Shown: in pieces, positions 6,924 through 56,569 of the stretch
How the letters are laid out: every line of letters begins with the position of its first letter
How positions within the stretch are numbered: position 1 is the stretch's first letter
Assembly: GCA_011033025.1 (NCBI GenBank)
Contig: WFMF01000131.1
Coordinates: 186,001 to 250,000, forward strand
Origin: Beroe forskalii
Taxonomy: Eukaryota; Ctenophora; Nuda; Beroida; Beroidae
Length of the DNA stretch: 64,000 nucleotides
Direction of reading: 5' to 3'
Notes under the pieces: generated by a model
Seen by the model: only the letters and a program-made list of their open reading frames with translations
Databases searched by the model: none
Told to the model about the DNA's origin: nothing
Made by a program: the position numbers and the translations under genes

Positions 6924-7019
6924 CTGAAAATAAAGAAATAATTAATGACGAGAGAAATAAAGAATGAAAACACCTATGAAGTTTGAAGAAATCGTTTATT
7001 AAGGTGATATATGCCACTC

Positions 7020-17584: not shown

Positions 17585-18421
17585 GTGAGTATTTCAACTT
17601 TTAATTTCAACAAATTGCGCGCATTTTGTCGCATTTTAATTGACTTTTGAATAGCATAATTATTAGTGGGAAGTGGGTATTCATGATTAATTCTTTAATT
17701 GTTTTTAGGATCGATAATATTTCATGATTGGTGTCACCTATGTAAGTATGTACCTATGATGGTCTCTGATTAGTTTTATGATAGGTGGTTTCTGATTGGT
17801 TGTTTTTTATGATCAGCAGTTGTTGGCTTGTGGACTGACGGTTTCTTGTATGGTTGATGGATGGGATATTTAGGAAATAGAGGGAAGAGGTATGAGTAGC
17901 TTACTGCTTTACTTTTATTTCAATTACTTTTTTATTTACCTTAACCCTTAATAACCTATTTGTGATAATTTATTTCTAATTACTAATTCTTTACTAGCTT
18001 TATATATTTCAAACTTCTTTTTCTTTTTCACCCCAAATTACTTATATCACCCGAATCGATTTCGATAACCTATATCCTGTGGAGAAACGGACTCTAGGTC
18101 GGGGGACTCTGGGTCGGCGGTGGCAAACCAGGGTGAACTCTTGGTCGGGAGATCCCCACATGGTAGACTCTAGGTCGGGAGACTCTTTAGTTTATATACA
18201 CTACCTAAAGCTTTTCACTTATAATTAAACGGTGAATCTCTCTGTGAAACATGATGAGACACTGATCATTGCTGAGACGCTGGATTATTGCCGAGGCATT
18301 GAGGGACACAGGGTGCCATCATGTGATCCGCCGGATCGTAGCTGAACCTTGACAGATGTGATGCGGGCGTGGAGGTGTGTCGAGCGGAGCTGCGGGTGTC
18401 CTGGACGCCTCTGAGCCCTGA

Positions 18422-19035
18422 ATGGTGCTTTCCACTCCCCACCCCCACTCCCACCCTGCTGATGCTGCGGACTCCAATGCTGCTGAGGCCCGCTCCAACA
18501 TCAAGCAGATGGCTGCCACAACCACCACCACCAACCACCGGATCTACTGTGTTGTGACTGGACCCCTCCCTGCAGACACCCTCGCCCTTCTCTCTGCAGA
18601 AGAAACCTTGAAGGAGTCAGCTCAACGGGCCAGAGGGAGACTCAACCCCCGCCCCAGAGCTCGCCCGCCCTTGCTGACCTGCTCCTTTAACCAGAAGACT
18701 GCCAGACCCTCAGACAAGCGGACATGCTCCTCTACGACAATGCTTCTGATGAAAGGAGGGCGATCATCCTTGCCACCAGTGATAACCTCAATTTCCTGCA
18801 TTGAGCACCAGCTGGTACCTCGACGGAACCTTCAGGTGCTCCCCCAACTCTTTTACCAGATCCTCATCCTCCATGCAGAACTCTCCTCCCTCACAGATGA
18901 CAGATCCTGGTGCCTCCCCCACATCCTCCTCACCCACAAGACTCTACCATCTGCCTGAGGGCTTCCCAGTCCCTTGTTTCCAACTGCCCCTTCCTAGCTC
19001 CTCAAGTTCTGATTGTGGACTTCGAACAGGCAATG
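18422..19035 (+). pseudogene. MULE transposase fragment, forward copy
   Basis: Degraded transposase sequence encoding the N-terminal alanine/proline-rich part and the start of the catalytic core (YDN-ERR, LDGTF, FYQ--ILHAE, VDFEQAM). An in-frame stop follows NFLH near 18,801 and at least two frame changes separate the blocks. The family cuts and pastes DNA through an RNase-H-like fold; only the first two acidic residues are visible here. Confidence 0.75.
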
Positions 19036-19117
19036 TGGAAGCAAGGGACTGGAAAGCCTGCGGGCGGAGTCCTCTTGTGTGAAGAGGATACAGACCGTGG
19101 GGAGGCACCAGGATCTG

Positions 19118-19570
19118 TCATCTGTGAGGAAGGAGAGTTCTGCATGGAGGATGGTAGAAGAGTTGGGGGAGCACCTGAAGGTTCCGCCGAAGAACCAGAG
19201 CTGCAAAGAGCACCATGGAGCTCTCTGCTAGGATGTTGAAGTTGTCACTGGAGGCAAGGATGATCGCCCTCCTTTCATCAGAAGCATTGTCGTAGAGGAG
19301 CATTTCCGCTTGTCTGAGGGTCTGGCAGTCTTCTGGTTAAAGCAGCAGGTCAGCAAGAGTGGGGAGCTCTGGGGGTTGAGTCTCCTCTGCCCTGGGAGCT
19401 GACTCCTTCAAGGTTTCTTCTGCAGAGAGAAGGGCGAGGGTATCGGCAGGGAAGGGTCCAGTCACAACACAGTAGATCCGGTGGTTGGTGGTGGTGGTTG
19501 TGGCAGCCATCTGCTTGATGTTGGAGCGGGCCTCAGCAGCATTGGAGTCAGCAGCATCAGCAGGGTGGAA
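19118..19570 (-). pseudogene. MULE transposase fragment, inverted copy
   Basis: Reverse complement of the forward fragment. On the minus strand it reads MLLYDNASDERRAIILAS, then RRNLQVLPQLFYH. Upstream it carries the same threonine/proline-rich stretch ('gtggttggtggtggtggttg' on the plus strand) as the forward copy. The copies differ by small indels, so the duplication is not brand new. Confidence 0.75.
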
Positions 19571-20088
19571 GTAGGGTTTGCCGAGGGAGGGGAAGGCATC
19601 ATTCAGGGTTTAGAGGCGTCCACTTGCAGCTAGAGGACACTTGCAGCTCCGGTTGGCACACCTCCAAACTTGTATCCCATCTGTCAAGGGCTTGCTATCT
19701 CTGAAGTAGCGGGAGCCAGCATGAAGGTGGGATTTAGAAATGAGGTTTCTACCTTGGATGATCTTGGTGGAGGTGTCTGTAGGGAGAGAAGGGGTTGGTT
19801 TTGAGGAGTAGGGAGAGATTGAGAGAAGGGGTTGATTTAGAGGAGTAGGGTGGAGATGGGGTTCTCCGTTGAGGACTGCATTAGCTTGATTCAGCTACAA
19901 TACGGCGGATCACATGGTTGGACCCTCTATCCGGGTTCTGTCATCAGGGTTAACCGAGAGATTCACCGTATAACTATAAGTGAATAGCTTTAGTGTATAT
20001 TATAAAGTAAAGAGGCTCCCGACCCAGAGTCCACCCTGGTTTGCTGCCGCCGACCCAGAGTTCCCTGACCTAGAGTCCGTTCCCTTCG

Positions 20089-23000
20089 CTCAAACAAAAA
20101 TACCTTACGCTATTTTTCGCGGCGCGTTCCATCACCTTTGCGCGTTCCCAAATCTGCAATTTATACAATTGCGCCGCAAAACCAATTATCTCAGCGCGCG
20201 CAATTTATTTTCAGACCAAATCTCAAATTTACGCCGCGCACTATATCAGGAGGTATTTCTCGAAATCGGCGTAAGTAATTATCGCGTTGGATAGGGTATT
20301 TCTCATTTCCAATTTTATTCACTGTGGATGGCGGCCATATTGGTTTGTGTTCTTAAATTTATGAGTCATTCATTCTCGCAGGGAATTTTGTTTCGTTTCC
20401 ACGTTCGTACTTTCTTTTTTAATTCCTGTTTCAGTGTTCACAGGACACATTTGAGCGTCTATTTTTTCAAAGATTTTCATTCGATTTTTCATGTGATTCC
20501 TTTGATGTGTATGTGTACGATCATTCCATACGACTTGGGGACTTGGCAACATTTTGATTTAATTCAATCATATCATCTCATGATCAAAAAATAAGATCTG
20601 CTGCCCAGATCATATACTATCGACCATTCACCATCAAGCTTTTTCCGAAGAGTTGTTGTCAACCAATCAGATTACTCCGGCAATATGTGCACATTGTATG
20701 AATGAACTTACTGTGACTTACTTTTGATGACCTTTTTCCTCATAGACCCTATTGTATTTTGTGTAAATGTAATTCACAAAATTTCAGTTTAAAAAAGCTG
20801 TGTCCTGACATCCTGAAGCGTTAGCTGGTCAATTGTTGAAATTTTATTGAATTTGAATGTCGATTGCATCGAATTTCAATTATATCAGTATTTTAGAAGG
20901 GATTGTTTCATTTTAATTCGTACTCATTCATCAAACAAAAGACCTCTATTTTAGTATTTTGGTACTGGTATAACTATTTGCCCCTTAATTATTATTTTAA
21001 GTCTGCACCCGTTACGCTTATTTTGCTTTTTTGAACGTATTGAATAAATCTTTAGATTCAAAATTTCTTACTCCTAGCGTTGAAATGATGGCGACGATGG
21101 TGCACCACGAGTTGAGCAACATTGAGAGTTGAAAATGTCAATTCAGAGGCAGTTATGAAGCCGGTTGCTTAGACGGCCAGAGCTACCATTGAATATTTAA
21201 GTAATGCTAAAATTGGTCAAAATTAAATACCAAATTGTGGTTAGATGTACAATCAATCTGAGTTACAGATATCTGTCTGCATATTCATGGAATTGAATGC
21301 TGAGTGTGATAAATGTCACGCAATCGATTTAAGGTTTGGTTTCGAGATCTGGAGCTCATGGAAGTTATACTTATATATTCTCGAATATAGTCAGAAGTTT
21401 GTTTGATCTGATGATGTGATTCACACAATAGTCTTAGAGATATTTCGCCAATACCAACTCAATTTAATTGTTTTTTTACAGATGTCGACTGTCGGAATAC
21501 CATTCAACTGCTGGATCTCATACTGCCAGGGTATTTCACACGTTGAGGATATCAACCACTGTTATGGGTCATCGAACTGTTCAAGATTCAATTTCAAGAA
21601 GCGGAGTTCAACTTCATGCCATTGAAAGAGCCAAACAGTAAGTCTTCAGTTAAACACATCCTTCGTCCTTTCATCCAAAGGGCCTTTCTGGCGACCTTCG
21701 TATTATTGTTATCCCATTTGTTATCATTTATAAATTTTTAGATATGTATATTGTGCGAATCTAAAAGTGTGTAGCTGGTAGCTCTTACTCCCCAGTCCAG
21801 AAAAATTGCCTTATTTGCACAATATCCATTTGTATGTTAACTCTGTACATTAATCCAGGCGCCGCGGCACACTCTCGATCCTGTGAAACCATCCGGCCCG
21901 GGACACACTATGTACAGATCCCGGGACACCTCAGATCCCGGGACACTCTCCTGACCCCGTGGACATTCTCTGGGAGTCTGGGACACCCTCCATATTCCGG
22001 GACACTCCAGACCGTGGGACACTGTACAGATCCCGGGACAGCCTCCAGATCTCGGCACACTACAAACTCCGGGACACTCCAGATCCCGGAACACTCTGCA
22101 GACCACGGGAAACCTTCCAGACCCCGGGATACTCTCCTGACCCGGGACACCCTCCATATTCCGGGACACTCCAGACCGTGGGACACTGTACAGATCCCGG
22201 GACATTCTCCGGGACAGCCTCCAGATCTCGGCACACTACAAACCCCGGGACACTCCAGATCCCGGAACACTCTGCAGACCACGGAAACCTTCCAGACCCC
22301 GGGATACTCTCCTGACCCCGTGGACATTCTCCGGGACACCCTCCATATTCCGGGACACTCCAGACCGTGGGACACTGTACAGATCCCGGCACACTACAAA
22401 CCCCGGGACATTCCAGATTCCGGAACACTCTGCAGACCACGGAAACCTTCCAGACCTGGGATACTCTCCTGACCCCGTGGACATTCTCCGGGACACCCTC
22501 CATATTCCGGGACACTCCAGACCGTGGGACACTGTACAGATCCCGGGACATTCTCCGGGACAGCCTCCAGATTCCGGCACACTACAAACCCCGGGACACT
22601 CCAGATTCCGGAACACTCTGCAGACCACGGGAAACCTTCCAGACCTGGGACACTCTCCTGACCCCGTGGACATTCTCCGGGACACCTCCATATTCCGGGA
22701 CACTCCAGACCGTGGGACACATGCAGATCGGGACACCCCATATTCCTGACCCACACTCCAAACCCATATTGGGACCTCCAGACAGATTCCGGTACACTCT
22801 GCAGACCACGGGAAACCTTCCAGACCTGGGACACTCCTGACCCCGTGCTACTACAGAGCCGTGAATATCCAGACCGGAACACACTACATAGCCCGGGATA
22901 CTCCTGATCCCGGTATCCTCTCCAGATCCCGGCCCACTATCCAGACCTCGGGAAATTCTTCAGACCCCGAGACAAACTCTGCACCCTGACGCACTCTGCA

Positions 23001-23425
23001 GACCCCAGAACACTTGCCAGATCCCTGTAAACTCTCCATCCTCGGCTAACAATTGTAAGTACAAATTAAAGTAGGAGCGGCGGTTAGGCAAACTTTTGCG
23101 ATTTATTTCACTTTTTAGAGTTTGTTTTGTCTTGAGTCATTGGAATATTCCTGGACTGATGACACACCCGGACCCCAGCCTGGATTCTGATCTTTGATAC
23201 ATCCCTGGCACCAGTTTGAACTCTGACGTACCCGGACACCAGACTTGACTCTGATGCATCTCTTACACAAGTCCGGGCTCTGATGCATCACGACAGCAGT
23301 TTGAATGCTGATGCATCCGTGACATCAGTCTAAATTTGACTTTCCCTAGCACCACTTTGCACTCCAATGTATCCCTGACATCAGTCTCGACTCTGATGCA
23401 AAACCCGGCACCAGTTTGAACTCTT
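20089..23425. repeat. Giant inverted repeat, left arm (about 3.34 kb)
   Basis: This segment is the reverse complement of 28,440-31,859 at high identity, with small indels. It starts CTCAAACAAAAATACCTTAC, includes a non-repetitive part (20,089-21,855), then a GGGACAC-type minisatellite (21,860-23,040), then 29-bp-type repeats (23,160-23,425). The left border lies ten bases beyond the MULE end. A GGATGGCGGCCATATTGG motif occurs at about 20,326. No intact gene was recognised. Confidence 0.93.
21860..23040. repeat. Minisatellite with about 190-bp higher-order unit, left arm
   Basis: The basic phrases (GGGACACTCCAGACC, CCCGGGACATTCTCC, CCTCCATATTCCGGGACAC) are about 19-21 bp. They are organised into a higher-order unit of about 190 bp, seen from the spacing of 'ccatattccgggacactcc' (near 22,153, 22,343, 22,500, 22,688). 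Both strands lack stops over long stretches, which produces many overlapping open frames of 90-230 residues. These are not genes. Confidence 0.92.
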
Positions 23426-26400
23426 AGTCCAGGACGTAAGGTCCAAAAAATGCCATCCGTTAGCAACCCGTGTTAAAAGCGATTTTTCGACGGTTACTAG
23501 GCCTTTAGACCATGTAGAATCGATCTAGCTCGGTCAGGACATCTGATCTCGATGGCGCCAAGTCGATATTGACCACGCCCTTTTTTAAGGTTCTGGCGCA
23601 GGCTTGATATTTCATAACTTGGCTCAGGAAGGTCGTAGAAACTTCGTTTTGGGCGCAAACGAAGCGCAATGGCCATGTTTGTATACAATTGTTGAAGAAA
23701 TTATGCACTAAAATGATCAGAAAAAAAAGTTATGACCGAAAACAGTTTTAAGCCCTTGCCAAGCGAAATTTTCGGTGATTTTCGAAATCCGTTAGCAACT
23801 TAAATTTTAAAGCGATTTCTCGACAGTTACTAGCCTTTAGACCATGTAGAATCGAATTAGCTTGGTCACGACATCTGATCTCGATAGCGCCAAGTCGATG
23901 TGACCACGCCCTTTTTTTACAGCAGGCTTGATATTTCATAACTTGGCTCAGGAAGGTCGTAGAGACTTCATTTGGGCGCAAACGAAGGCAATGGTCATGT
24001 TTCTAGACAATTGTTATCATGAGGAAATTCGCATGCGTACAAATCTTCATCACGAATGGCGATAATAGAACCTACGCTCATAATACAGATAGGTGTGGGT
24101 CCAGACTGGTTTCTAATGCATAGGCTCAAGACTAATGTCAGTCATGTATCAGAGTCGAGACTGTTGCCCAGGTGCCAGCAACGGATAAGAGTCCAGACTC
24201 TTGTCCGGGTTAAAAATAAGTGTCAGGTGCCATCTAACTGGTGTCAGAGACATCAAACCAGAGTGGTGTTAGGAAAAGTCAGAACTTTGATTGATGTCAC
24301 GGATGAATCAGAGTCCAGATTGGGGTAAGTAACGCATCAGACTCGAGACTGATGTCACAGGCACATTAGCATCCAAGCTGGTGTCAAAGATGCATCGGAG
24401 TCAAGACTGGAGTCAGTAATACGGAGTCGGTAATACTGGTGCCAGGTATGTATGAGAGTCGAGACTGATGTCACGAATGCATCCGCATCCAAATTGATGC
24501 TGGTGTCAACTTTCAGAGATACGACAGAGTCTAAACTTGTGTTAGGTATAATACATCAGAGTCGAGATCAGATGTCAGGAACGCATCAGAGTCCAGACTG
24601 TTGTCCGGATTCTTCCTACTTTCAGAGTTCAAACGGCTGCCAGGTATGCTTCAGAGTCGACACTGGTCAGTGGTGTTAAGAACGCATCAGAGTGCAGAAT
24701 TGAGCTAGGGAAAAGTCAGGGCTTAGACGGGTGTCAGGGATGTATCAGAGTCTATACTGAAGTCAGGAATACGTCAGAGCCCAGACTAGTGTCCAGGTAC
24801 TTCAGAGTCCACACTGATACCAGGTATGCATCAGAGTCGAGACTTGACTCAGGAACACATAAGCATCCAAGAGATGCATCAGATTCGAGACTGATGTCAG
24901 GGAAGAATCAAATTCAAGACTGGTGTCACGGATGCATCAGCATCCAAACTAGTGCCAGAGATTCATCAGAGTCCAGACTGATGTCAAAGATGCATCAGAG
25001 TCCAGACTTGAGTCAGTGACACGGCAGAGTTCAAACTGGTGCCAGGTATGCATAACAGTCGAGACTGGCGTCAAGAATACATTGAAGTGTAGAGTGGTGT
25101 TAGGGAAAGTCAAATTTAGACTGATGTCACAGATCATGCATCAGAGTCCACACTGGTGTCAGGAACGCATCAGACTCAAGACTGATGTCACGGATGAATC
25201 AGAGTCCCGACTGGGGTAAGCAACGCATCAGACTCGAGACTGATGTCACAGACACATAAGCATCCAAGCTGGTGTCAAAGATGCATCAAAGTCCAGACTG
25301 GAGTCATTGATACGGCAGAGTTCAAACTGGTGCCAGGTATGTATGAGAGTCGAGACTGATGTCACGAATGCATCAGCATCCAAATTGATGCTGGTGTCAA
25401 CTTTCAGAGATACAACAGAGTCTAAACTTGTGTTAGGTATAATAGATCAGAGTCGAGACTAGTGGCAGGGACGCATCAGAGTCCAGACTGTTGTCCGGAT
25501 TCTTCCTACTTTCAGAGTTCAAACGGCTGCCAGGTATGCTTCAGAGTCGACACTGGTCAGTGGTGTTAAGAACGCATCAGAGTGCAGAATTGAGCTAGGG
25601 AAAAGTCAGGGCTTAGACGGGTGTCAGGGATGTATCAGAGTCTAGACTGATGTCAGGAAAGTATCACACCCAAGACTGGTGTCCGGGTACGTCAGAGTTC
25701 AAACTGGTACCAGGTATGCATCACTCTGATGCATTGCATCAGAGTAGAGACTGGTGTCAGGAATGCATCAGAGTTGTGTTAAGGAAAAGTCAGGGCTTAG
25801 ACGGGTGTCAGGGATGTATCAGAGTCTATACTGAAGTCAGGAATACGTCAGAGCCCAGACTAGTGTCCAGGTACTTCAGAGTCCACACTGATACCAGGTA
25901 TGCATCAGAGTCGAGACTTGACTCAGGAACGCACAAGCATCCAAGAGATGCATCAGATTCGAGACTGATATCTGGAAAGAATCACATTCAAGACTGGTGT
26001 CACGGATGCATCAGCATCCAAACTAGTGCCAGAGATTCATCAGAGTCCAGACTGGTGTAAAGATGCATCAGAGTCCAGACTGGAGTCATTGACACGGCAG
26101 AGATCAAACTGGTGCCAGGTATGTATTACAGTCGAGACTGGCGTCAGGAATACATTGAAGTGTAGAGTTGTGTTAGAGAAAGTCAAATTTAGACTGATGT
26201 CACAGATCATGCATCTGTAGAGTTAGATATAGGTTCAGCCATATATTTAGGATAATTGGGCTTGCGCTTTAAAGTCCAAAAATCTTACCCAAATTTTAGA
26301 TACGTATTTCTCTTGAGTTGTTTTGTCTATAAAAAGAAAGTGAAAGTTTTGTCCGAACGAAATATTTTGACGCCGCGTTTTTTATTTTGGCTTCTAGGTT

Positions 26401-28439
26401 AGATGTTTTGTCCAGAGTTAAAAGTTTCCAATAGCGTTTTCGATAAATATTTTTCAGTTTGATATTCTAGTACTCTCTATATTCTATACTTGCCATCACA
26501 AGAAGTAAAAGATACCGAGATTTTCCCTCCTATCCAAGTGTTTCCTATTACCACTCAGGAAGTCTGGGGTTGAATTGATTGGAGAACGACGACGACGGAG
26601 ACTTCTAAATCTCAAGATACGCGAGCAGAGCAGCCTAGAGGTGTTGGGTTACAAAACCTTTCTGTGCAGTGGACAGTGGACAAAGTGTAGCTGATCGGAG
26701 ACGGACAGTGCAGTGCTGAGTGTTGTCAGGGGACGTTGTGACCTGGACTACAGACATGAGTTCAGTGCGGGGTTACTAGGCAAGGAGTTCAGGACGCTGT
26801 GGAACACATGGAGCACGAGGAATGGAAGAGCAGACCCACAGGAGGGAGTTCAAGTCGGAATCTGTCGTTGTTATGACCTGCTGTCCTGCTGGGACGAGCT
26901 GAGCTTGAGCAAATATGGGCAGGCTACCCTCCACGAGGAAGGCGTCACACAGGAAAGCCAGCAGTCAGGGAGGAGTTCTTTACAGCAAGATGCTAACCAT
27001 CTTGATCAGTGTTTCAGTGTGTGGTTTTGGGGAACATGTTAAGTTTTCATGTTGGGCAAGAGTCAGTCACCAGTGTGCTGGATAAGTGAATGATTCCTAA
27101 ACTGCTCTGTTCTATCACAACATCTTGATGTTTTTAAATCTCTGTTTGGGTCGTGATGCTGCGATCTTAAGACACTTTCAGTTGTACAACATTCCGGAAT
27201 TGGAATGGTTGATTTGAATGCATATGAATGGCTGAGGTGTTCTTTTTTAATCAATCGGATACTTGGAAGGTGGTCGAAGGTGTGACAGTCCACCCGATAT
27301 TCTTTGTGTGTTTGAAGACATGATTTTATGATGTTTAGGTTGCTTCAACAGTCGAAACTGGACTGGTTTTGATTGGAATTTGAATACAGAGAAAAGTTGT
27401 GAACTGGTCACATGATTTAGATTGATGATGGTGATGGATATCAAGTTTAAACTGGAAAATCAGTTGAAAGCTGGTTAAGTGAGTAAGTGTCATCGGCATG
27501 TTTTGAAGTGTGAAGGCCACCCATCACATTTGCAGTTTGTAAGTCACTATCACAGTATGGTAGATAAAACTGGTGCTCCAGGAAGGCCATCAGTCGGATG
27601 GAGACTGGGCTCCTCAAAACAGCTCAGCAGTCAACTCTGGCCAGGTAGAGAAACGACAGGAGTTCGACGTCTTGGACTCAGGGAGGTAACTGGGCCTATT
27701 CAAGGTGATAAGTGATGGACTACGTACCCGCAGTCGGAGGCTATGTTCGGGGGACTTCGGTGCCACTAATACCAGGTTTGCTTCAGATCATCCGGTTGGA
27801 CAGCTTGGCTAACATCAAGGTGGTCAGCTCCAGGAATATCAAGTGAGGGACAACCCAGGGATGGTGTCTCTGGTTCCCCAGAGACGGAAGAACTAGTGGG
27901 TGTGATTCATTTGATTCATTGTTGGTGTGGGTTGCATCTGGCTACCGTACACAAGTGAGAAAGAATGATCTGGCTGCCAGGAACACATTAAGTCATAGAA
28001 TGTGATCTGGCTCCCAGAACACAAGAAGAGAGGTTGTGTTGGCTACCCAGAATTTGCAAAGAGACCTGTCAGTGTGATCATGCATCAGAGTCTACACTGA
28101 GGAAAGTCAGGAAAAGCTCAAGATGCTTGTTCTGAAAGTGAACTCCTTGGCTAACTGGTTCACAAAACTGGTATCCAATATGCATCAGAGTCCACACTGG
28201 TGTCAGGAACGCATCAGATCAAGACTGATGTTACGGATGCACAAACATCCAAACTGGTATCCAATATGCATCAGAGTCCACACTGGTGTCAGGAACGCAT
28301 CAGACTCAAGACTGATGTCACGGACGAATCCAGACTGGGGTAAGCAACGCATCAGACTCGAGACTGATGTCACAGACACATTAGCATCCAAGCTGGTGTC
28401 GAAGATGCATCAAAGTCCCGACTGGAGTCATTGATACGG
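23426..28439. repeat. Loop of the giant inverted repeat
   Basis: Three parts are visible. First, 23,440-24,030 holds a tandem duplication (period about 340 bp) with 'ccatgtagaatcga', 'catctgatctcgat' and 'gaccacgccc' in both copies. Second, 24,070-26,220 and 28,080-28,439 hold a degenerate 29-bp minisatellite. Third, 26,220-28,080 is single-copy-looking sequence. A 109-residue frame at 26,713-27,042 has no recognised domain and is not called. Confidence 0.8.
24070..26220. repeat. Degenerate 29-bp minisatellite with about 900-bp higher-order repeat
   Basis: The unit resembles GATGCATCAGAGTCGAGACT + GATGTCACG (29 bp) and contains the inverted core AGTC-NN-GACT, so each unit is quasi-palindromic. 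A longer period is also present. The stretch from 'caactttcagagatac' to 'gggcttagacgggtgtcagg' occurs near 24,507-24,750 and again near 25,397-25,630. A block at 24,720-25,135 recurs at 25,793-26,210. Confidence 0.88.
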
Positions 28440-31400
28440 CAGAGTTCAAACTGGTGCCGGGTTTTGCATCAGAGTCGAGACTGATGTCAGGGATACATTG
28501 GAGTGCAAAGTGGTGCTAGGGAAAGTCAAATTTAGACTGATGTCACGGATGCATCAGCATTCAAACTGCTGTCGTGATGCATCAGAGCCCGGACTTGTGT
28601 AAGAGATGCATCAGAGTCAAGTCTGGTGTCCGGGTACGTCAGAGTTCAAACTGGTGCCAGGGATGTATCAAAGATCAGAATCCAGGCTGGGGTCCGGGTG
28701 TGTCATCAGTCCAGGAATATTCCAATGACTCAAGACAAAACAAACTCTAAAAAGTGAAATAAATCGCAAAAGTTTGCCTAACCGCCGCTCCTACTTTAAT
28801 TTGTACTTACAATTGTTAGCCGAGGATGGAGAGTTTACAGGGATCTGGCAAGTGTTCCGGGGTCTGCAGAGTGCGTCAGGGTGCAGAGTTTGTCTCGGGG
28901 TCTGAAGAATTTCCCGAGGTCTGGATAGTGGGCCGGGATCTGGAGAGGATACCGGGATCAGGAGTATCCCGGGCTATGTAGTGTGTTCCGGTCTGGCTAT
29001 TCACGGCTCTGTAGTAGCACGGGGTCAGGAGTGTCCCAGGTCTGGAAGGTTTCCCGTGGTCTGCAGAGTGCGCCGGGATCTGGAGTGTCCCGGAGAATGT
29101 CCCGGGATCTGTACAGTGTCCCACGGTCTGGAGTGTCCCGGAATATGGAGGGGTCCCGGAGAATGTCCACGGGGTCAGGAGAGTATCCCGGGGTCTGGAA
29201 GGTTTCCCGTGGTCTGCAGAGTGTTCCGGAATCTGGAATGTCCCGGGGTTTGTAGTGTGCCGGAATCTGGAGGCTGTCCCGGAGAATGTCCCGGGATCTG
29301 TACAGTGTCCCACGGTCTGGAGTGTCCCGGAATATGGAGGGTGTCCCGGAGAATGTCCACGGGGTCAGGAGAGTATCCCGGGGTCTGGAAGGTTTCCCGT
29401 GGTCTGCAGAGTGTTCCGGAATCTGGAATGTCCCGGGGTTTGTAGTGTGCCGGAATCTGGAGGCTGTCCCGGAGAATGTCCCGGGATCTGTACAGTGTCC
29501 CACGGTCTGGAGTGCCCCGGAATATGGAGTGTGTCCCGGAGAATGTCCACGGGGTCAGGAGAGTATCCCGGGGTCTGGAAGGTTTCCCGTGGTCTGCAGA
29601 GTGTTCCGGAATCTGGAATGTCCCGGGGTTTGTAGTGTGCCGGAATCTGGAGGCTGTCCCGGAGAATGTCCCGGGATCTGTACAGTGTCCCACGGTCTGG
29701 AGTGTCCCGGAATATGGAGGGCGTCCCAGACTCCCAGAGAATGTCCACGGGGTCAGGAGAGTGTCCCGGGATCTGAGGTGTCCCGGGATCTGTACATAGT
29801 GTGTCCCGGGCCGGATGGTTTCACAGGATCGAGAGTGTGCCGCGGCGCCTGGATTAATGTACAGAGTTAACACTTAACATACAAATGGATATTGTGCAAA
29901 TAAGGCAATTTTTCTGGACTGGGGAGTAAGAGCTACCAGCTACACACTCTTAGATTCGCACAATATACATATCTAAAAATTTATAAATGATAACAAATGG
30001 GATAACAATAATACGAAGGTCCCTGAAAGGCCCTTTGGATGAAAGGACGAAGGGTGTGTTTAACTGAAGACTTACTGTTTGGCTCTTTCAATGGCATGAA
30101 GTTGAACTCCGCTTCTTGCAATTGAATCTTGAACAGTTCGATGACCCATAACAGTGGTTGATATCCTCAACGTGTGAAATACCCTGGCAGTATGAGATCC
30201 AGCAGTTGAATGGTATTCCGACAGTCGACATCTGTAAAAAAACAATTAAATTGAGTTGGTATTGGCGAAATATCTCTAAGACTATTGTGTGAATCACATC
30301 ATCAGATCAAACAAACTTCTGACTATATTCGAGAATATAAGTATAACTGCCATGAGCTCCAGATCTCGAGACCAAACCTTAAATCGATTGCGTGACATTT
30401 ATCTCATGACTCAGCATTCAGTGTTATTCCATGAGTCCATGAATATGCAGACAGATATCTAGCCAACTCAGATTGATTGTATATCTAACCACAGCCGTTT
30501 GGTATTTAATTTTGACGGTCAATTTTACTCGAAACATTACCTTAATTATTCAATGAAAGGTTTTTAACACATCAATGGCTAATCCACGCTACTACAATTT
30601 CGGTAGCTCTGGCCGTCACAACCGGCTTCATAACTGCCTCGAATTGACATTTTCAACTCTCAATGTTGCTCAACTCGTGGTGCACCATCGTCGCCATCAT
30701 TTCAACGCTAGGAGTAAGAAATTTTGAATCTAAAGATTTATTCAATACGTTCAAAAAAGCAAAATAAGCGTAACGGGTGCAGACTTAAAATAATAATTAA
30801 GGGGCAAATAGTTATACCAGTACCAAAATACTAAAATAGAGGTCTTTTGTTTGATGAATGAGTAGGAGTACGAATTAAAATGAAACAATCCCTTCTAAAA
30901 TACTGATATAATTGAAATTCGATGCAATCGACATTCAAATTCAATAACTCAATAAAATTTCAACAATCGACCAGCTAACGCTTCAGGATGTCAGGACACA
31001 GCTTTTGAATTTGAATTTGAATAAAATGTTTACAGCACAATGACAATGAATATATTTTCTCGGGTTTATATTATGAATGAAGCTTCTATGTTGTGCTGAG
31101 GGAAAACACTCAGTCAATCATAAAGACTGTTAACGAGGTTGCCCACTAAACTGAAATTTTGTGAATTACATTTACACAAAATACAATAGGGTCTATGAGG
31201 AAGAAGGTCATCAAAAGTAAGTAACAGTAAGTTCATTCATACAATGTGACATATTGCCGGAGTAATCTGATTGGTTGACAACAACTCTTCGGAAAAAGCT
31301 TGATGTTGAATGGTCGATAGTATATGATCTGGGCAGCAGATCTTATTTTTTGATCATGAAGTCATGAGATATGATTGAATTAAATCAAAATGTTGCCAAG

Positions 31401-31859
31401 TCCCCAAGTCGTATGGAATGATCGTACACATAAGCACATACACATCAAAGGAATCACATGAAAAATCGAATGAAAATCTTTGAAAAAATAGACACTCAAA
31501 TATGTCCTGTGAACACAGAAACAGGAATTAAAAAAGAAAGCACGAACGTGAAAACGAAACAAAATTCCTTGCGAGAATGACTCACATAAATTTAAGAACA
31601 CAAGCCAATATGGCCGCCATCCACAGTGAATAAAATTGGAAATGAGAAATACCCTATCCAACGCGATAATTACTTACGCCGATTTCGAGAAATACCTCCT
31701 GATATAGTGCGCGGCGTAAATTTGAGATTTGGTCTGAAAATAAATTGCGCGCACTGAGATAATTGGTTTTGCAGCGCAATTGCATAAATTGCGGATTTGG
31801 GAACGCGCAAAGGTGATGGAACGCGCCGCGAAAAATAGCGTAAGGTATTTTTGTTTGAG
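28440..31859. repeat. Giant inverted repeat, right arm (about 3.42 kb)
   Basis: Reverse complement of 20,089-23,425. It begins in 29-bp repeats, passes the GGGACAC minisatellite (28,820-29,855), and ends GGTATTTTTGTTTGAG. An insertion of about 130 bp at roughly 31,003-31,150 and small substitutions distinguish it from the left arm. Beyond 31,859 the flank has no similarity to the flank of the left arm. Confidence 0.93.
28820..29855. repeat. Minisatellite with 190-bp higher-order unit, right arm
   Basis: Four very similar higher-order units are visible from the recurrence of 'gtcccggaatatggag' near 29,137, 29,324, 29,515 and 29,705. The spacing of about 190 bp matches the inverted array in the left arm, but copy number and unit borders differ. 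Homogenisation has therefore continued after the arms formed. Open frames here are artefacts. Confidence 0.92.
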
Positions 31860-33105
31860 GATGTTTTTATAAATAATGCACTCATGTCACATGTGTACAC
31901 AACTAACCTACTAATAGAGGTTTAGAATTTAGATCATTGTCAAGAAGAAGAATTGTCAATACCCTTACTACCACCTTTGTCATGGGCCTGCAAAATGACC
32001 ACTCAGCTTGTGCAAATGTCGAAAATTATAAATTACTAGCAGGCGCGGTGAATGTTGATTTCAAAGGAGCAAACGACGAAAGTTGCGATGCGCTCGTGGT
32101 TAGGTGAATGTTGATTTCAAAGGAGCAAACGACGAAACTTGCGACGCACTTGTGGTTAGGCACTAGGAAACACTAACGCATTGTTTGACTGGTCTTACTG
32201 TGAATTATGATTTTTCCTTCATTCGTATTCTGAATAAAGCTGCATTAGAAATGGAAATAAATTAGATATTAATTTTAGGCCTTGCCTGGTGCGCGCTCAG
32301 ACTAAGCGCAAATTCATAATTCTACGCCGCGCATTTCGTCTTGTAAGTTTGTAACTATATCTGAAATAACTTTGCGACGCGCGCAGAGTTTCTGCGTTGC
32401 GCGCAAGATTAAAATGCGCGCGCGTCTTGCCCTAACCAGCGCCCTGGTTTCGCGCACGGAGTGCGCGGCGCGACACCCCTGGTTAGGGGAAGCGCGCGTC
32501 GTGTTTTGTTAGTTCAACAATTTTGTTTTCCCTTACCTTTACATGAAGTGTTCTGAATCGAAATTGGTGAACTTCTAATTAATTTTGAAACATGCCGAGA
32601 TGTAGGAACATCGTTCGATGCGAATTTATTTAATCGGTTGAACTCTACTGTTTAGATATTTGTTGTAATAATTTCCTACTTTCCTAAGCGTCCGATAATG
32701 TCGTCCAAAATTCCTATATGCCTCATGAACTACGGATTTAAAAACATCAACATTTAAAATAAAAGCAACATCTCGACAGCTTAAATCACTAACGTAATAG
32801 TAACACTACTTTAGAAACTACTTTATGTTGCACGTGCGCAAATATCCAACTCCATAGCAACGGCACGTCATTTCTCCCGTTTGCATTCGTTTCTCTTGAT
32901 ATTTTCTTGGCAAGCTCTAATTTAATTCGGTGCGGAAGCACAAACAAACATTATTCACGTGCTCTTACGAAATTATAAGTAAGATTTTGCCCCTAATGCT
33001 CTAATGCTGATATCAATTCCACCTGAAACTCATATTGTGGTGCCCTCCAAGGATTTTCTATAAGGAATCAACGTTTTTGATAGAATTAGGTGCCAATGCA
33101 GAACT
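31860..33105. other. No gene; CpG/GCGC-rich stretch and a 56-bp duplication
   Basis: Two tandem copies of a 56-bp phrase ('ggtgaatgttgatttcaaag', 'gagcaaacgacgaaa') lie at about 32,048-32,160. From 32,280 to 32,510 the sequence is rich in GCGCGC, with a hairpin of 'gccctaaccagcg' facing 'cctggttaggg'. Nothing recognisably coding was seen. Confidence 0.5.
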
Positions 33106-36800: not shown

Positions 36801-39800
36801 CTCTCGTTTAGTAAGACAGCAGTTTTGTATGTCGCACTTCATGATATAGCGTCATTGGAGCATTAGATGTATCATATCACATATGCATGTATAAAAAGGG
36901 GCATAGATCCGTTTGCCACTTTGTCCAGGCGCCAGTCGAATGCAGGTCTACTGCCGGTTTAATGCAGGTCTAACGCCAGTCTAGTGCAGGTCTAATGCAG
37001 GTTTGGCGCCGGTTTTGTGCAGGTTTAGCGCCGGTTTAGCGCGGGGCCAGCGCCAGTCTAATGCAGGTCCTGTGCCACTCTAATGCAGGTCTAGCGCCGG
37101 TTTGGTGCAGGTCCAGCGCCGGTTGAGCGCGGGTACAGCGCTGGTGCAATGCAGGTCTAGCGCCGGTTTAATGCAGGTCTTGTGCCAGTCTAGTGCCACT
37201 CTAATGCAGGTCTAGCGCCGGTTTGGTGCAGGTCCAGCGCAGGTCCAGCGCAGGTGCAGCGCTGGTCCAATGCACCTCGGATGCTATCTCAATATTACTT
37301 ATGCATTTCATACAGATTTGGCGCCGATTAAATTATGCAGGTTTGACATCTTTTCATGAATGTTTGGCGCTGTTTTAATGCAGGTGCAACGCCATTACAA
37401 TGCGGGTTTGGCGCCGGTTTCATGCAGGTTTAGCATGTTCAATTCTATGCCCCATGACTCTTCATAATAATAATAAATAATGGTTACCGGTGGTAACTAA
37501 CGTACTTCATCATTGTTACCGGTGGTAACTAACATACGTTACCATGGTTACCGATGGTAACTTACGTACATAACCATGGTTATCTGTGGTAACTGACGAA
37601 CGTTACCATGGTTACCGGTGGTTACTAACGTACGTTACCATGGTTACCGACCTGGTAACTAACGTGGGTTACCATGGTTACCGATGGTAGCTAACGTACG
37701 TTACCATGGTTACCGGTGGTAACTTAGGTGGGTTACCATGGTTACCGATGGTAACTAACGTGGGTTATCATGGTAAACGGTGGTCACTGGTCACTAATGT
37801 AGTAACGTATGTTACAATGGTTACCGATGGGCGCTAACGGACGTTACCATGGTTACCGGTGGTCTCTAACGCACGTTACCATGGCTAACGGTGGTAACTA
37901 ACCTGCATTGGAATGGCGTTGCACCTGCATTGAAGCAGCGCCGGGCATGCATGAAACGACGTCGAACATGCATAATTTAATCGGCGCCAAATCTGTATAA
38001 AATGCATTAGTAATATTGAGATAGCATCCGAGGTGCATTGGACCAGCGCTGCACCCGCGCTAAACCAGCGCTGGACCTGCACCAAACCGGCGCTAGACCT
38101 GCATTAGAGTGGCACAGGACCTGCATTAGACTGGCGCTGGCCCCGCGCTAAACCGGCGCTAAACCTGCACAAAACCGGCGCCAAACCTGCATTAGACCTG
38201 CACTAGACTGGCGTTAGACCTGCATTAAACCGGCGCTAGACCTGCATTAGACTGGCGCCTGGACCCGGTTGGAATAACCTGCAATCCTGGCAATCCTAGC
38301 TGGGCAACATTATTTGTTAAAGCAACCATGAAATTTCAGAATTTAACGACTTAAAATTAGGTGTGCAGCTACAATTTTACTGTTACATCAGTCAGTTTTC
38401 AAAAATGGAGAGTGAAACGTGCAATCATAGTTTGCTACTCACTGTATCACCATCAGTATGCAATGCATAAAATTCCCATTTTATTCTTAGCACTAGTCAG
38501 GATTAGAAACACTGAATAACGTACATACTACGTTGGTATCATTCATATTATGATATCACACCTTCTCGCTTTAATAATTACTGCAGAAGGGATATGCGTA
38601 GTCTATCTACTTCCCTCATAATATCCAGCATATATCCAGAATTCCATGGACCATGCTAGCGCAACCAGAGCAACCCAACTTGTTACTTTTTTCGGAGGAT
38701 TGTAAGCGGAGCTTACAATCCTGAGGCTCTCTAGCAATCCTGGTTGCGATCCTGGTTGCAGCTGATTAGATTATTGTGAGGGTGAGCTGTAGTAAAACAC
38801 TGCTGCTGAGAGCAGCAACTTGCAAGCTCTCTAAAGCGGTGGTTGCACTTCCAGTCGGCATGATCTGATCGAGTTTTAACTTTTTAGGAGTGGACTTAAT
38901 TTTAACAAAAACAAAGATCCAATTAGAAATAAAAACCAGGAGTATATCTAATATTCGTATTCAAGATACAGCGACACATAGACAATATTAAATCATGATC
39001 AATATTCAGCCTGAAATTTGTTTTTTCGAACTCCTGTGTATGAGTAAAAGGTGACGTTTTGACTCGCTTATCAAACAAAAAATCTGTGCTTCCATTTTTT
39101 TAGGATAGTAATATATCAAACGACAGCCTTTTAGCTGATTATATTTGTTAGTTATTAAGTTATAAGCCTGACACACAATTGATCTTTGAAACATGAACAT
39201 TTACTTTTACAATTCATCAATTGGTTGAGTAAAAGAATAGTGAGCAGTGAGTAAGTGATTCAAATTTTGTCTGTCAGGTGGAAATAATTATGAATTACAT
39301 AATGTGTAGCCTACTCGGGGCTTCTGAATCAAAAAATTAGAGATTTTTGAATGAAACACGCTGTTTAAATCTCGGATATTTTCTTGCTCAAATGAAGGAA
39401 AACCCTGCAAAATTATACATTTTTAGCAAAAATTTTCCGGGGGGCTTCGCCCCCCTAGACCCCCCCACCAGGGGCTCTGCCCCTGGACCCCGCTGGGGGC
39501 TGCGCCCCCAGACCCCTGCTGCAGCTCGCTCGGCGCCGCTTCGCGGCACCTCGCTCGCTACCAAAAGCTACCGTGCTCGCTTCGCTCGCACAGGATTGGC
39601 AACCAGCCTAACCTTTATTCCAACCGGGCGCCTGGACAAAGTGGCAAACGGATCTATGCCCATAAAAAGTGCAGTGCAAGTCAGTTGCAGAACCAATAAT
39701 TTCAAAATTTCCCTCGTTCTCATTCCAGCATCTTTACGTTAACACCTAACTTCTCTTGTATACTAAGATACTAGTCACTAGATGATGTTTACTCGGCTAG

Positions 39801-40729
39801 TAAAATCCTATTTTCAGGTCTCGTTTGCTGTCATGGACACGTCAGAAGGCTGCAGTCCTAAGTCAGGGCAACGAACTCGCTTTGAAAGGACTAAATCCAT
39901 GATGCTGATAAAGACCCCTGAGTTTACCCACATATACGGTACTCGTAAGGGAGAGCAGTTCCAACACCAAGCTCTGAAACTCTTCCTTACCACTCTCACT
40001 CCAACCACCAACGATCTCTTTATCCTAGCCCTCATGTTCATCAACTACAGCTGTCTCTTCGAGATATTCCTCTCTAACGGCAACATCGCCCGGAGGATAT
40101 TCAGGACTTTGTGGTTTATGGCCAAACGGAACTTTCTGCTGTGCTCGGTGTGGCTGCCGCTGGTCAGCGTCTTCCAGATATCGCAAGTAAAGCCACTGCT
40201 GGCAGTCTTCATGTCGCACTACCGGCGGCTGATGAACACTGAATTGGCGGCAGTGCTGCGACATGACGCCCTCCTACTCTCCCGGTACCCAGTCCTCGTG
40301 TTCAGCACCGTCCTTGTGAGCATCCTCCTCCTCTCCTACCTGGACAGGAAGTACCGTCTCGGCCTCGTTACTCGGCATCAGGACCTCCAACTACCCTTCC
40401 TCGACTTCATGCCCACTGTCGAGCACCTCGTGCACTTCGACCCGATCACGTGGCCGTTATACACCACGCGAGTCAGTGAGTACCCGGATGAGAAGTGGTT
40501 GCAGCGATGTGTGTCGGAGCTGATGGTGGGGCTGAGTAGTTGGGAGTGGTGTGAGGAGGAGGAGGAAGGGGAGGAGTGTGCTATCTGTCTGGAGGGGTTC
40601 GGAGCAGGAACCACTGTCTGCTCCTTGCCTTGCTCCCACACCTTCCATCACTCCTGCACAGAGACCTGGATGACTAGCGACTGTCAGAATAGGTGGCGGT
40701 GCCCCATGTGCAGGGAACCCATATTCTAG
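33744..40729 (+). CDS. RNF103: RNF103-like RING-H2 E3 ubiquitin ligase, five exons
   Basis: An ER-membrane ubiquitin ligase; the vertebrate protein RNF103 (KF-1) acts in ER-associated degradation. The joined exons give about 562 residues against about 685 in human. The N-terminal anchor (LLRVALLVLCVLLLVV) is followed by LQLVDPLALK, IKQLKELLEARGI, SHFLEEVE, WVVRVV, RIGIQTGTFYC, IRWLYSK and PAFFSALAVQF, all collinear with RNF103. Exon 5 carries NDLFILALMF and further membrane helices. The C-terminus holds the RING-H2: CAIC, then 14 residues, CSHTFHHSC, 14 residues, CPMC. The vertebrate serine/acid-rich linker before the RING is shorter here. The start ATG (GCCATGC) matches the family's N-terminus exactly. 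A polyadenylation signal AATAAA lies at 40,752. The splice choices for introns 1 and 2 are uncertain (see exons). Confidence 0.9.
35051..35245 (+). CDS. RNF103: RNF103-like exon 2
   Basis: Encodes IKQLKELLEARGI, EKSALVEAVEDSGG and LNFTSESHFLEEVE, matching the LKTILECRG...SGDL...HFYELVE segment of RNF103. The donor that preserves the protein is GA|GTTTTT at 35,245. The more canonical AG|GTCGAG at 35,240 would shift exon 3 out of frame. Confidence 0.8.
35940..36180 (+). CDS. RNF103: RNF103-like exon 3
   Basis: Encodes DSKSTVWVVRVV, LAKRLSRIGIQTGTFYC and CLRQGWKIVPAMILTMPS, a thioredoxin-like luminal segment in RNF103 proteins. The in-frame acceptor is CGAG|G at 35,939. The pyrimidine-rich CCCCCAG|GTCGAG at 35,933 looks stronger but gives a frameshift with the canonical upstream donor. 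It ends TACCAG|GTTCGT in phase 0. Confidence 0.85.
36554..36760 (+). CDS. RNF103: RNF103-like exon 4
   Basis: Starts after TCTTAG in phase 0 and ends GGCAAG|GTCAGT in phase 0. It encodes GVGTEKSMIRWLYSKLEESV and PAFFSALAVQFIGK; the PAFFSAL-----G motif is identical in position to vertebrate RNF103. Both junctions agree with the neighbouring exons. Confidence 0.9.
36923..38264. repeat. Fold-back palindrome inside RNF103 intron 4
   Basis: Outer ends are GTCCAGGCGCCAGT and ACTGGCGCCTGGAC. Arms (about 36,923-37,405 and 37,902-38,264) consist of a degenerate minisatellite of about 20 bp, TGCAGGTCTAGCGCCGGTTT. They share a unique patch, 'caatgcacctcggatgctat' facing 'atagcatccgaggtgcattg'. The centre holds the palindromic TTACCATGG array listed separately. 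No target duplication was found. Confidence 0.88.
37478..37901. repeat. Minisatellite of about 32 bp with palindromic unit (TTACCATGGTTACC)
   Basis: About twelve units of ACGTTACCATGGTTACCGGT followed by GGTAACTAACGT. Within each unit TTACCATGGTTACCGGTGGTAA is full of nested inverted repeats (CCATGG, GGTTACC/GGTAAC, ACGTACGT). It forms the centre of the fold-back palindrome. Confidence 0.9.
39437..39595. repeat. GC-rich hairpin cluster in RNF103 intron 4
   Basis: Consecutive strong hairpins with tiny loops: GGGGGGCTTCGCCCCCC, CCAGGGGCTCTGCCCCTGG and CTGGGGGCTGCGCCCCCAG. They are followed by 'gctcgctcggcgcc', 'gcttcgcggc' and 'gctcgcttcgctcgc'. The open frame across it (39,347-39,742) is compositional. 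The sharp rise in GC against an AT-rich intron marks it as inserted sequence. Confidence 0.85.
39818..40729 (+). CDS. RNF103: RNF103-like exon 5 with RING-H2 finger
   Basis: Begins after TTTTCAG in phase 0 with VSFAVMDTS and continues directly from GK of exon 4, as FTGRVEFIFVNVEN does in vertebrates. It holds RKGEQFQHQALKLFLTTL and NDLFILALMF, then three or four hydrophobic helices. The glutamate run (EEEEEGEE) leads into the RING-H2, with eight metal ligands at about 40,577-40,718. It stops at TAG, 40,729. Confidence 0.93.
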   Translation, partial: VSFAVMDTSEGCSPKSGQRTRFERTKSMMLIKTPEFTHIYGTRKGEQFQHQALKLFLTTLTPTTNDLFILALMFINYSCLFEIFLSNGNIARRIFRTLWFMAKRNFLLCSVWLPLVSVFQISQVKPLLAVFMSHYRRLMNTELAAVLRHDALLLSRYPVLVFSTVLVSILLLSYLDRKYRLGLVTRHQDLQLPFLDFMPTVEHLVHFDPITWPLYTTRVSEYPDEKWLQRCVSELMVGLSSWEWCEEEEEGEECAICLEGFGAGTTVCSLPCSHTFHHSCTETWMTSDCQNRWRCPMCREPIF

Positions 40730-44100: not shown

Positions 44101-45017
44101 AGTCATCCTATGAACCTCTTTGGTCCATTCTTAGCATTGCATCGTGTTTCTCGTGTCGAAAAACCCCTATTTTGACATATCACATGCCATGGGTATAAGG
44201 AAATGGGAATTTTGTAATTTTGGGCTCACGCGTGTGTCTAAAAAAGGGGTGTGGTCACCTCTAGACCGTTCTGTGAACATTTTGAGCCAAATCTGAGGAT
44301 TGCATTGTGTTTCTCGTGTCTAAAAACCCCTATTCTGATATATCACATGCCATGGGTATCGGTAAATGGGAAGTTTGTAATTTTGGGCTCACGCATGTGT
44401 CTAAAAAAGGGGTGTGGTCACCTCTAGACCGTTCTGTGAACATTTTGAGCCAAATCTGAGGATTGCATTGTGTTTCTCGTGTCTAAAAACCCCTATTTTG
44501 ATATATCACATGCCATGGGTGTCAGGAAATGGGAATTTTGTAATTTTGGGCTCACGCATGTGTCTAAAAAGGGGCGTGGTCACCTCTAGACCGTTCTGTG
44601 AACATTTTGAGCCAAATCTGAGGATTGCATTGTGTTTCTCGTGTCTAAAAACCCCTATTTTGATATATCACATGCCATGGGTGTCAGGAAATGGGAATTT
44701 TGTAATTTTGGGCTCATGCGTGTGTCTAAAAAGGGGCGTGGTCACCTCTAGACCTTTCAGTGAACATTTTGAGCCAAATCTGAGGATTGCATCGTGTTTC
44801 TCGTGTCGAAAAACCCCTATTTCGATGTATGATACACCATTTCAAGGGCAAAACAAAAACTTTTCGATCCTATGGCATGCGCATACAGGGCAAAAATGGG
44901 CGTGGCCAAAACTAGGTGACGTCATCGAAATAAAAAATGTCGGCATAGCTAGATCGATTCAGCATAGCCTAAAATACCTAGAACCACTCCTAACTGTCCA
45001 TTAACACGAAAAAAGCG
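41135..45017. mobile_element. Fold-back-like element, 3.9 kb, long repetitive inverted arms
   Basis: The ends are TCCCGTGCTTTTTTCGTG and CACGAAAAAAGCGCGGGA. Next come mirrored unique blocks (TGACGTCACCTAGTTTTGGC facing GCCAAAACTAGGTGACGTCA). Then both arms carry tandem units of about 180-190 bp with 'cacgagaaacacgatgcaat', 'gtgaccacacccc' and 'cccatggcatgtgatat'. The left arm (41,135 to about 42,110) has about four units, the right arm (about 43,500-45,017) about seven. The loop (about 42,110-43,500) is unrelated sequence with a tRNA-like SINE head. Long frames such as 44,414-45,004 are repeat artefacts. No transposase was seen. Confidence 0.85.
42336..42407 (-). ncRNA. tRNA-like SINE head (degenerate tRNA)
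   Basis: The minus strand has a B-box GGTTCGAATCC, an A-box-like TGGTGTAGTGG, 72 nt between GCTGG and CCAGC ends and a 5-bp anticodon-type stem (AGGAT/ATCCT). The anticodon loop has six bases, and the acceptor and T stems contain mismatches. It is therefore not a functional tRNA, but it fits the pol III promoter part of a tRNA-derived SINE. The body probably extends to about 42,180, toward lower coordinates. Confidence 0.65.
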
Positions 45018-56500: not shown

Positions 56501-56569
56501 ACTAGTGATAGTGTTGTGACAGAGAATGTCAGGGGGTTGTTATCAGTGTTACACGGCTCAGAGTTTTAA
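53409..56569 (+). CDS. Unidentified alpha-solenoid-like protein, copy 2 (intact)
   Basis: Two exons, 53,409-53,529 and 54,255-56,569, join in phase 1 (AAD-ISEA) to give 811 residues. It is a tandem paralogue of the 48,215-51,247 gene with the same exon structure. The N-terminal third (TTDLKHVLQILHYLTGSL, HRLLKVIKRIQTYC, SIIVLWLHILIDYRYIKTPP) and the C-terminus (LRQLTRSMLVIASASPSDEE, VTENVRGLLSVLHGSEF) are highly conserved. The middle contains a charged, probably disordered linker (YESDEDITYYEPEKL, GTSSSDKKGKKYKD). The composition is helical and repeat-like, with no signal peptide or clear membrane span. No catalytic motif was seen and the function is unknown. AATAAA lies at 56,656. Confidence 0.8.
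54255..56569 (+). CDS. Copy 2, exon 2
   Basis: Starts after TTTTCCTGCAG with DISEAFAADANNLRTIL and runs 771 codons to TAA without interruption. An open frame also continues upstream through the acceptor to 54,185, but that part is intronic, because copy 1 has the same junction. Confidence 0.85.

What the first reader, a model, noticed from the sequence alone, without database searches (positions are those of the whole stretch)
20089..31859. Giant 11.8-kb inverted repeat with minisatellite arms and loop
Arms of about 3.4 kb are near-identical reverse complements separated by a 5-kb loop. Both arm and loop are largely tandem repeats. This is the architecture of fold-back (FB) transposons or of a large palindromic duplication, and is unusually large.
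Basis: seen in the sequence. Interest (0 to 1): 0.75.

Follow-up and report, generated by a model that had tools for sequence, protein, structure and literature searches.

The report
Two broken transposons, head to head
The giant inverted repeat is real, but it is best read as two damaged copies of one large, apparently non-coding jumping element lying head to head with other mobile elements dropped into them, not a fold-back transposon moving as one unit.

Summary
The inverted repeat is confirmed: arms 20089-23424 and 28441-31859, 97.6% identical over 3,140 aligned bases, with a 5,016-base loop. Searching the host's own 216-Mb genome shows what it is. The arm end (TCAAACAAAAATACC) is the right end of a dispersed family of TIR DNA transposons: 46 right ends and 39 left ends found. 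Ten left-right pairs face each other 6.3-14.4 kb apart. The four copies read whole (6.3-9.6 kb) show no recognisable transposase, and subfamilies carry different internal minisatellites. Intact ends abut TA. The window holds two right-hand pieces of this element facing each other. The left piece is about 3.3 kb. The right piece (~24018-31867) is colinear with a complete 9.6-kb relative on contig C2. The loop is therefore one end of an unrelated high-copy transposon (23425-~24017) plus the extra length of the right piece, which carries a 1.86-kb insertion flanked by an 11-bp direct repeat. The left outer end lacks its last nine bases and TA. One smaller right-right pair (2.5 kb) exists in another subfamily. 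How the pair arose is unsettled: two insertions fused by deletion, or inverted end duplication as proposed for Galileo.

The parts
20089..23424 (-). Left piece: right-hand ~3.3 kb of the transposon, inverted. Its outer end starts at CTCAAACAAAAATACC; the outer nine bases of the TIR and the TA are missing
23425..24017 (+). One ~590-bp end of an unrelated high-copy transposon (its copies often occur as facing pairs about 3.4-5.1 kb apart), at the head-to-head junction; inner break between about 24015 and 24023
24018..31867 (+). Right piece: right-hand part of the transposon, colinear with the complete 9.6-kb copy on C2 (C2:1075331-1081751); TA at 31868-31869
   Evidence: end position read from the letters
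28441..31859 (+). Part of the right piece that pairs with the left piece (right arm of the inverted repeat)
21915..22847 (-). 19/36-bp minisatellite in the left arm
29067..29775 (+). 190-bp higher-order array of the same minisatellite in the right arm
24873..26088 (+). 29-bp minisatellite arrays of the right piece, also present in the C2 copy
26216..28075 (+). Nested 1.86-kb insertion flanked by an 11-bp direct repeat GATCATGCATC (26205-26215 and 28076-28086); its first ~400 bp recur elsewhere (ten places at 91-95%, others weaker); class not settled
31006..31146 (.). About 140-bp high-copy short repeat (35 other places in a capped list) inserted in the right arm only
31859..31867 (+). Outer nine bases of the right TIR (diverged), present at the right end only

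Best explanation
The structure is a compound of two right-hand fragments of one family of large non-autonomous TIR DNA transposons, lying head to head. Shown: the family, its two different ends, the TA next to its intact ends, internal minisatellites, the two fragments, the foreign transposon end between them, and the later insertions. Inferred: complete members are moved by cut and paste at TA by a transposase supplied from elsewhere. Two copies of one subfamily came to lie in opposite orientation, by separate insertion or by copying of one right end in inverted orientation; both left-hand parts are missing at a junction that now carries one end of another transposon. Patches of near-identity between the arms may reflect later gene conversion. 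As it stands the unit should not move as a whole, because its left outer end is incomplete. The confidence given is for the compound anatomy; within it I favour two insertions fused by deletion (about 0.5) over inverted end duplication (about 0.35).
For: The arm end recurs as the right end of a dispersed family (46 places, up to 2 mismatches; reversed-pattern control 0) and a different left end at 39 places (up to 3 mismatches; control 0). Eleven facing left-right rows are ten distinct elements, 6.3-14.4 kb between ends (one C817 left end is paired with two right ends). Conservation stops at TA: TAAAGT is exact at 30 of 46 right ends and 16 of the 23 left ends examined (of 39 found), and bases outside it vary. 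The complete C2 copy is colinear with the right piece, so most of the loop is ordinary internal transposon sequence. The nested insert has an 11-bp direct repeat. Left, right and C194 are about equally related.
Against: Two facing right-right pairs among 46 right ends, against about 0.03 expected under uniform placement, is more than chance, so some process favours same-end inverted pairs; independent insertion alone does not explain it. The innermost 417 bp of the arms are identical: p = 0.0013-0.0017 against uniformly placed mismatches, but 0.023 if 23 mismatches in a probably misaligned minisatellite stretch are left out. That would also fit copying of one arm from the other. Further inward, where C194 does not reach, 25 sites unite the two arms against C199 and C2. 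No transposase was found, and no empty site.
Confidence: 0.8

Rival explanations
1. Origin variant within the same anatomy: inverted end duplication. A broken left end was repaired by copying the right end and the sequence behind it onto the left side, as proposed for Galileo TIR extension.
For: Marzo et al. 2013 propose this route and list solo-TIR copies (PMC3573991: passages, Discussion read). A second right-right pair (C212, 2.5 kb) and a facing left-left pair (C633, 3.6 kb) exist here. The inner 417 bp of the arms are identical.
Against: The left outer end should then keep its own outer TIR bases and TA; in both right-right pairs it does not. In the 1.1 kb shared with C194 only one site unites the arms alone, and in C212 the arms are closer to the C225 copy (99.1% and 99.4%) than to each other (98.6%). 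A foreign transposon end sits at the junction.
Confidence: 0.35
2. A fold-back transposon that moves as an 11.8-kb unit.
For: Shape, arm length, tandem repeats in the arms.
Against: Incomplete left end, no matching flank duplication seen, no second copy of the unit found, junction made of another transposon.
Confidence: 0.05
3. Assembly artefact: one arm is a chimeric or mis-joined copy of the other.
For: Long inverted repeats are prone to mis-assembly (general knowledge); reads were not available.
Against: The arms differ at 76 aligned bases and 27 gaps, the right arm has its own short insertion, and the outer flanks differ.
Confidence: 0.06
4. Large palindromic (segmental) duplication of a chromosome stretch.
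For: High arm identity.
Against: The outer arm limits coincide with transposon ends rather than lying in host sequence, and the arms are as close to C194 as to each other.
Confidence: 0.04

Closest known systems
Galileo (P superfamily) of Drosophila: extended-TIR (2RT), two-TIR and solo-TIR copies, PMC3573991 (passages and Discussion read)
   Same: Solo-end copies, long recombinant inverted ends, tandem repeats in some arms, subfamilies
   Different: Here the two ends of complete copies share only about 24 bp, the flank is TA rather than a 7-bp duplication, no transposase was seen, and the left outer end is incomplete
Tetris, a Foldback element of Drosophila virilis, PMC4079207 (passages read)
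   Same: Apparently non-autonomous, tandem repeats inside long inverted arms
   Different: Tetris has three structurally complete copies with 8-9 bp TSDs; this unit has one copy found and no matching duplication
Tc1/mariner-type elements (TA target; recalled)
   Same: TA next to both intact ends, short TIRs
   Different: Copies are 6-10 kb with minisatellites; a DDE transposase was not found and not searched for; superfamily not established
Helentron-type non-autonomous elements with a tandem-repeat core (oyster PMC7492417 and DINE-1 PMC4067079, search listings only)
   Same: Tandem arrays inside dispersed non-coding elements
   Different: Ends here are symmetric TIRs at TA; the asymmetric ends of Helentrons are recalled, not tested

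Membership tests
Fold-back (FB/Tetris-type) transposon, for the 11.8-kb unit | Two long TIRs with intact outer ends | tested here: not met
   Left outer end lacks nine bases and TA; right end present but diverged
Fold-back (FB/Tetris-type) transposon, for the 11.8-kb unit | Matching target site duplication at both outer ends | tested here: not met
   TA on the right, none on the left; flanks compared by eye. A joined-flank search, with the neighbouring 2-kb palindrome left out as well, gave no empty site
Fold-back (FB/Tetris-type) transposon, for the 11.8-kb unit | Tandem repeats inside the arms | tested here: met
Fold-back (FB/Tetris-type) transposon, for the 11.8-kb unit | More than one copy of the same unit | tested here: not met
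   Only single arms found elsewhere in this subfamily: C2, C194, C199; tool counts are lower bounds
TIR DNA transposon, for the family to which the arms belong | Inverted termini at both ends of dispersed copies | tested here: met
   Left and right ends share AAGT..TCAAACAAAAATAC; ten distinct facing left-right elements
TIR DNA transposon, for the family to which the arms belong | Fixed short target at the ends | tested here: met
   TA boundary; TAAAGT exact at 30 of 46 right ends and 16 of 23 left ends examined. TA being palindromic, a duplication was not separately proven
TIR DNA transposon, for the family to which the arms belong | Transposase of the family | tested here: inconclusive
   No recognisable transposase in ORF lists of four complete copies (C2, C159a, C580, C817, cut-offs 90-150 aa). 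Only six of those ORFs were run against Pfam, without a match. The 14.4-kb C159 copy has a stretch read as N
Tc1/mariner superfamily | DDE/D transposase | not tested
   No coding partner in hand
LINE (considered first) | Reverse transcriptase ORF belonging to the element | tested here: not met
   The ORF in C159a that looked CR1-like by eye (no Pfam match) lies in a separate high-copy insertion, absent from the C211 relative
Large palindromic duplication | Arms are each other's closest relatives | tested here: inconclusive
   Not closer to each other than to C194 over 1,091 columns; further inward C194 is missing and the arms group together against C199 and C2
Large palindromic duplication | Duplicated host sequence in the arms | tested here: not met
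   The outer limits of both arms are transposon ends and the outer flanks differ

The most novel reading that the evidence does not exclude
Inverted right-right and left-left dimers are a regular by-product of this family's transposition or gap repair: two facing right-right pairs and a facing left-left pair were found where about 0.03 and 0.02 are expected. In both right-right pairs one outer end lost its outer nine bases just before the conserved TCAAAC, pointing to a defined aberrant reaction at that position rather than random decay.
Probability: 0.15. Interest if true: 0.5.

Novelty: new member of a known kind. Interest (0 to 1): 0.3.

Why it matters
It replaces a 'giant fold-back element' with a worked example of how a head-to-head pair of minisatellite-bearing transposon fragments, plus nested insertions, comes to look like one. 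The family itself is of moderate interest: 6-10-kb apparently non-coding TIR elements in which the three subfamilies read carry different minisatellites (12-bp, 23-bp, and 19- plus 29-bp units), so a common pair of ends spreads unrelated tandem arrays through a genome.

Tried and rejected
LINE reading: the ends looked 3'-anchored with variable 5' truncation and an ORF that looked CR1-like by eye lay upstream in C159a. It was dropped when that ORF proved to lie in a separate high-copy insertion and a true left end was found. The ORF itself has no Pfam match; a neighbouring ORF outside the C159b copy is a reverse transcriptase, PF00078. Some apparent truncations are insertions: C159b continues after a ~155-bp insert (my reading).

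Penelope-like or ribozyme-bearing element: an Rfam search of window 19900-32200 gave one sub-threshold lncRNA match, and nine other loci gave none at gathering threshold.

Palindrome inserted into the left terminus: the missing outer TIR bases are not on the far side of the 18086-20081 palindrome.

Empty site: joined outer flanks found only the window's own two halves, and a high-copy repeat further out on the right.

Right piece as an insertion into the 590-bp-end transposon: the inner sequence of two other copies matched no part of the right flank; not exhaustive.

Transposase: ORF lists of four complete copies and partial ones; none recognisable. Six ORFs from C2, C159a, C580 and C817 were run against Pfam, without a match.

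Tree of the C212 arms: too few informative sites, and both arms are closer to C225 than to each other.

Full report
Setting. The window is part of contig C172 (186001-250000) of an unnamed 216-Mb genome in 1,134 contigs. A rhodopsin-type receptor ORF and a RING-finger ORF suggest an animal (inference). The species was not identified.

The observation. Inverted pairs found tile 20089-23424 against 28441-31859 with 5,016 bp between. A global alignment gives 3,064 of 3,140 aligned bases identical (97.6%), 18 gaps in the left arm and 9 in the right. Identity is uneven: 28441-28857 is perfect (417 bp), the minisatellite part is 95.9%, and the outer 700 bp are 97.4%. TRF finds 19/36/190-bp arrays in the arms and 29-bp arrays in the loop; they make up a minority of each arm.

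Who else has the arm end. A 703-bp arm-end query finds close copies on C199 (98%), C194 (94%) and C2 (89%), plus weaker matches, mostly to the first 60-200 bp. A looser pattern gives 46 right ends (25 forward, 21 reverse; up to 2 mismatches; reversed-pattern control 0).

A false trail. Right-end copies looked anchored at one end and truncated at variable points, and an ORF that looked CR1-like by eye lay upstream in C159a, which suggested a LINE. One search showed that ORF to lie in a separate high-copy insertion: the C211 copy runs straight across the point where C159a has it. Comparing C633, C211, C159a and C2 then exposed the real other end: TA, AAGT, a few variable bases, TCAAACAAAAATAC, then AGGGAGCCGCGCG. 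A pattern search found 39 such left ends (up to 3 mismatches), control 0.

The family. Within 20 kb there are 11 facing left-right rows, which are 10 distinct elements of 6.3-14.4 kb (one C817 left end is paired with two right ends), 2 facing right-right pairs (window 11.77 kb; C212 2.48 kb), 2 facing left-left rows (both on C633), one left-left pair pointing away, and two tandem pairs. Most of the 46 right and 39 left ends thus have no partner within 20 kb. TAAAGT is exact at 30 of 46 right ends and 16 of 23 left ends examined (of 39 found); bases outside TA vary, with C or T favoured just before it. The ends that deviate include the window's left end and C212's left end. The patterns required TCAAAC within the mismatch limit, so ends broken deeper would have been missed, and clustering of breaks just before TCAAAC may be a search effect. 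Complete copies read through are C2, C159a, C580 and C817. They show no recognisable transposase in ORF lists, and the six of their ORFs run against Pfam had no match. Subfamilies have different arrays: 12-bp (about 2.1 kb, C159a and the partly read C179), 23-bp (2.2-3.4 kb, C580, C817), and 19- and 29-bp (C2 and the window).

Anatomy of the window. The right piece is colinear with C2: C2 1075331-1076383 with window 24023-25041, 1078366-1079769 with 28165-29615, 1079114-1080997 with 29032-31005, and 1081000-1081751 with 31147-31869. So the loop from about 24018 on is the rest of the right copy. 23425-24015 matches a separate family at more than 30 places (40 of 1,340 candidates were scored), many as facing pairs about 3.4-5.1 kb apart by their coordinates, but only one such end is present here. 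Inner sequence of two other copies matches only 23615-24015 in the window. 26216-28075 is bounded by GATCATGCATC on both sides (26205 and 28076; a third copy of that motif at 25132 lies in the 29-bp array). Its first ~400 bp recur at ten places at 91-95% and at others more weakly. About 31006-31146 is a short repeat with 35 other places in a capped list, absent from the left arm, C2, C194 and C199. The right end keeps a diverged outer TIR and TA; the left end does not.

Relation of the arms. Over 1,091 columns shared by both arms and C194, left-right is 97.34%, right-C194 97.80% and left-C194 97.62%. In that stretch eight sites unite left, right and C194 against C199 and C2; one unites left and right alone, one right and C194 alone, and three single sites conflict with these (left-right-C2; left-C199; right-C199). 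Further inward, where C194 does not reach, 25 sites unite left and right against C199 and C2, and one conflicts. A 28-bp segment present in C194 and C2 is absent from left, right and C199. This fits three copies from one burst; it does not require one arm to be a duplicate of the other, nor exclude it. The perfect inner 417 bp are unlikely under uniform mismatches (p 0.0013-0.0017), less so (0.023) without the 23 mismatches of a probably misaligned stretch, so gene conversion is a suggestion only.

How it works and how it arose. Shown: family, ends, fragments, junction, nested insertions. Inferred: mobilisation in trans at TA. For origin, two insertions in opposite orientation fused by deletion explains the foreign transposon end at the junction and the star-like relation; inverted end duplication, as proposed for Galileo (PMC3573991, Discussion read; passages), explains why facing same-end pairs exceed the ~0.03 (right) and ~0.02 (left) expected by a uniform-placement estimate. 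I put these at roughly 0.5 and 0.35 within the compound reading.

Compared with known kinds. Tetris has long arms with tandem repeats and three structurally complete copies with 8-9-bp duplications (PMC4079207, passages). The window unit meets only the arm features. The Helentron papers were seen only as search listings. I did not find a published description of this family, but no paper search used its sequence or a species name.

Surroundings. The same 64-kb window holds two more inverted minisatellite pairs: 36923-37153 against 38034-38264 (97% identical) and 41327-41928 against 43898-44506 (94%), and a 2-kb palindrome at 18086-20081. They were not studied further.

Limits. No reads, no species name, no transposase, no empty site. 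Genome counts are lower bounds by the tool's own statement.

Noticed in passing
window 18086-20081: A separate 2-kb palindrome (inner 18347-19689 about 82%, outer parts about 72%) ends about 8 bp before the left arm; it gave no match to the C2 or C159a copies of the family.
   Followed up: partly
window 36923-38264: Another inverted repeat with minisatellite arms: 36923-37153 against 38034-38264, 97% identical, with a 32-bp minisatellite between.
   Followed up: partly
window 41307-44850: Inverted pair of 162-bp tandem arrays: 41327-41928 against 43898-44506, 94% identical.
   Followed up: partly
window 58379-60531: About 112 copies of a 19-bp tandem unit, 91% matches, 2.15 kb.
   Followed up: no
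window 48929-51247 and 54185-56569: Two neighbouring similar stretches in the same orientation (84% and 76% DNA identity over two blocks; the second holds a 794-aa ORF); the two ORFs tested have no Pfam match.
   Followed up: partly
window 5877-6941 (-) and 39782-40729 (+): Rhodopsin-family receptor ORF (PF00001) and RING-finger ORF (PF13639).
   Followed up: partly
C212:59696-62187 (L016, L017): Second facing right-right pair of the family, arms about 650 bp, 98.6% identical; its left outer end also lacks the outer TIR bases.
   Followed up: partly
C633:8182-11798: Facing left-left pair of the family, 3.6 kb, with a third left end at 17650.
   Followed up: no
L106 (C352) and L087 (C310): Two copies abut CCCTAA-type telomere-like repeats, at the TA of that unit.
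   Followed up: no
C159:426877-428029 and C159:265146-266300: Two stretches of one contig 99% identical over 1.15 kb, possibly a recent duplication.
   Followed up: no
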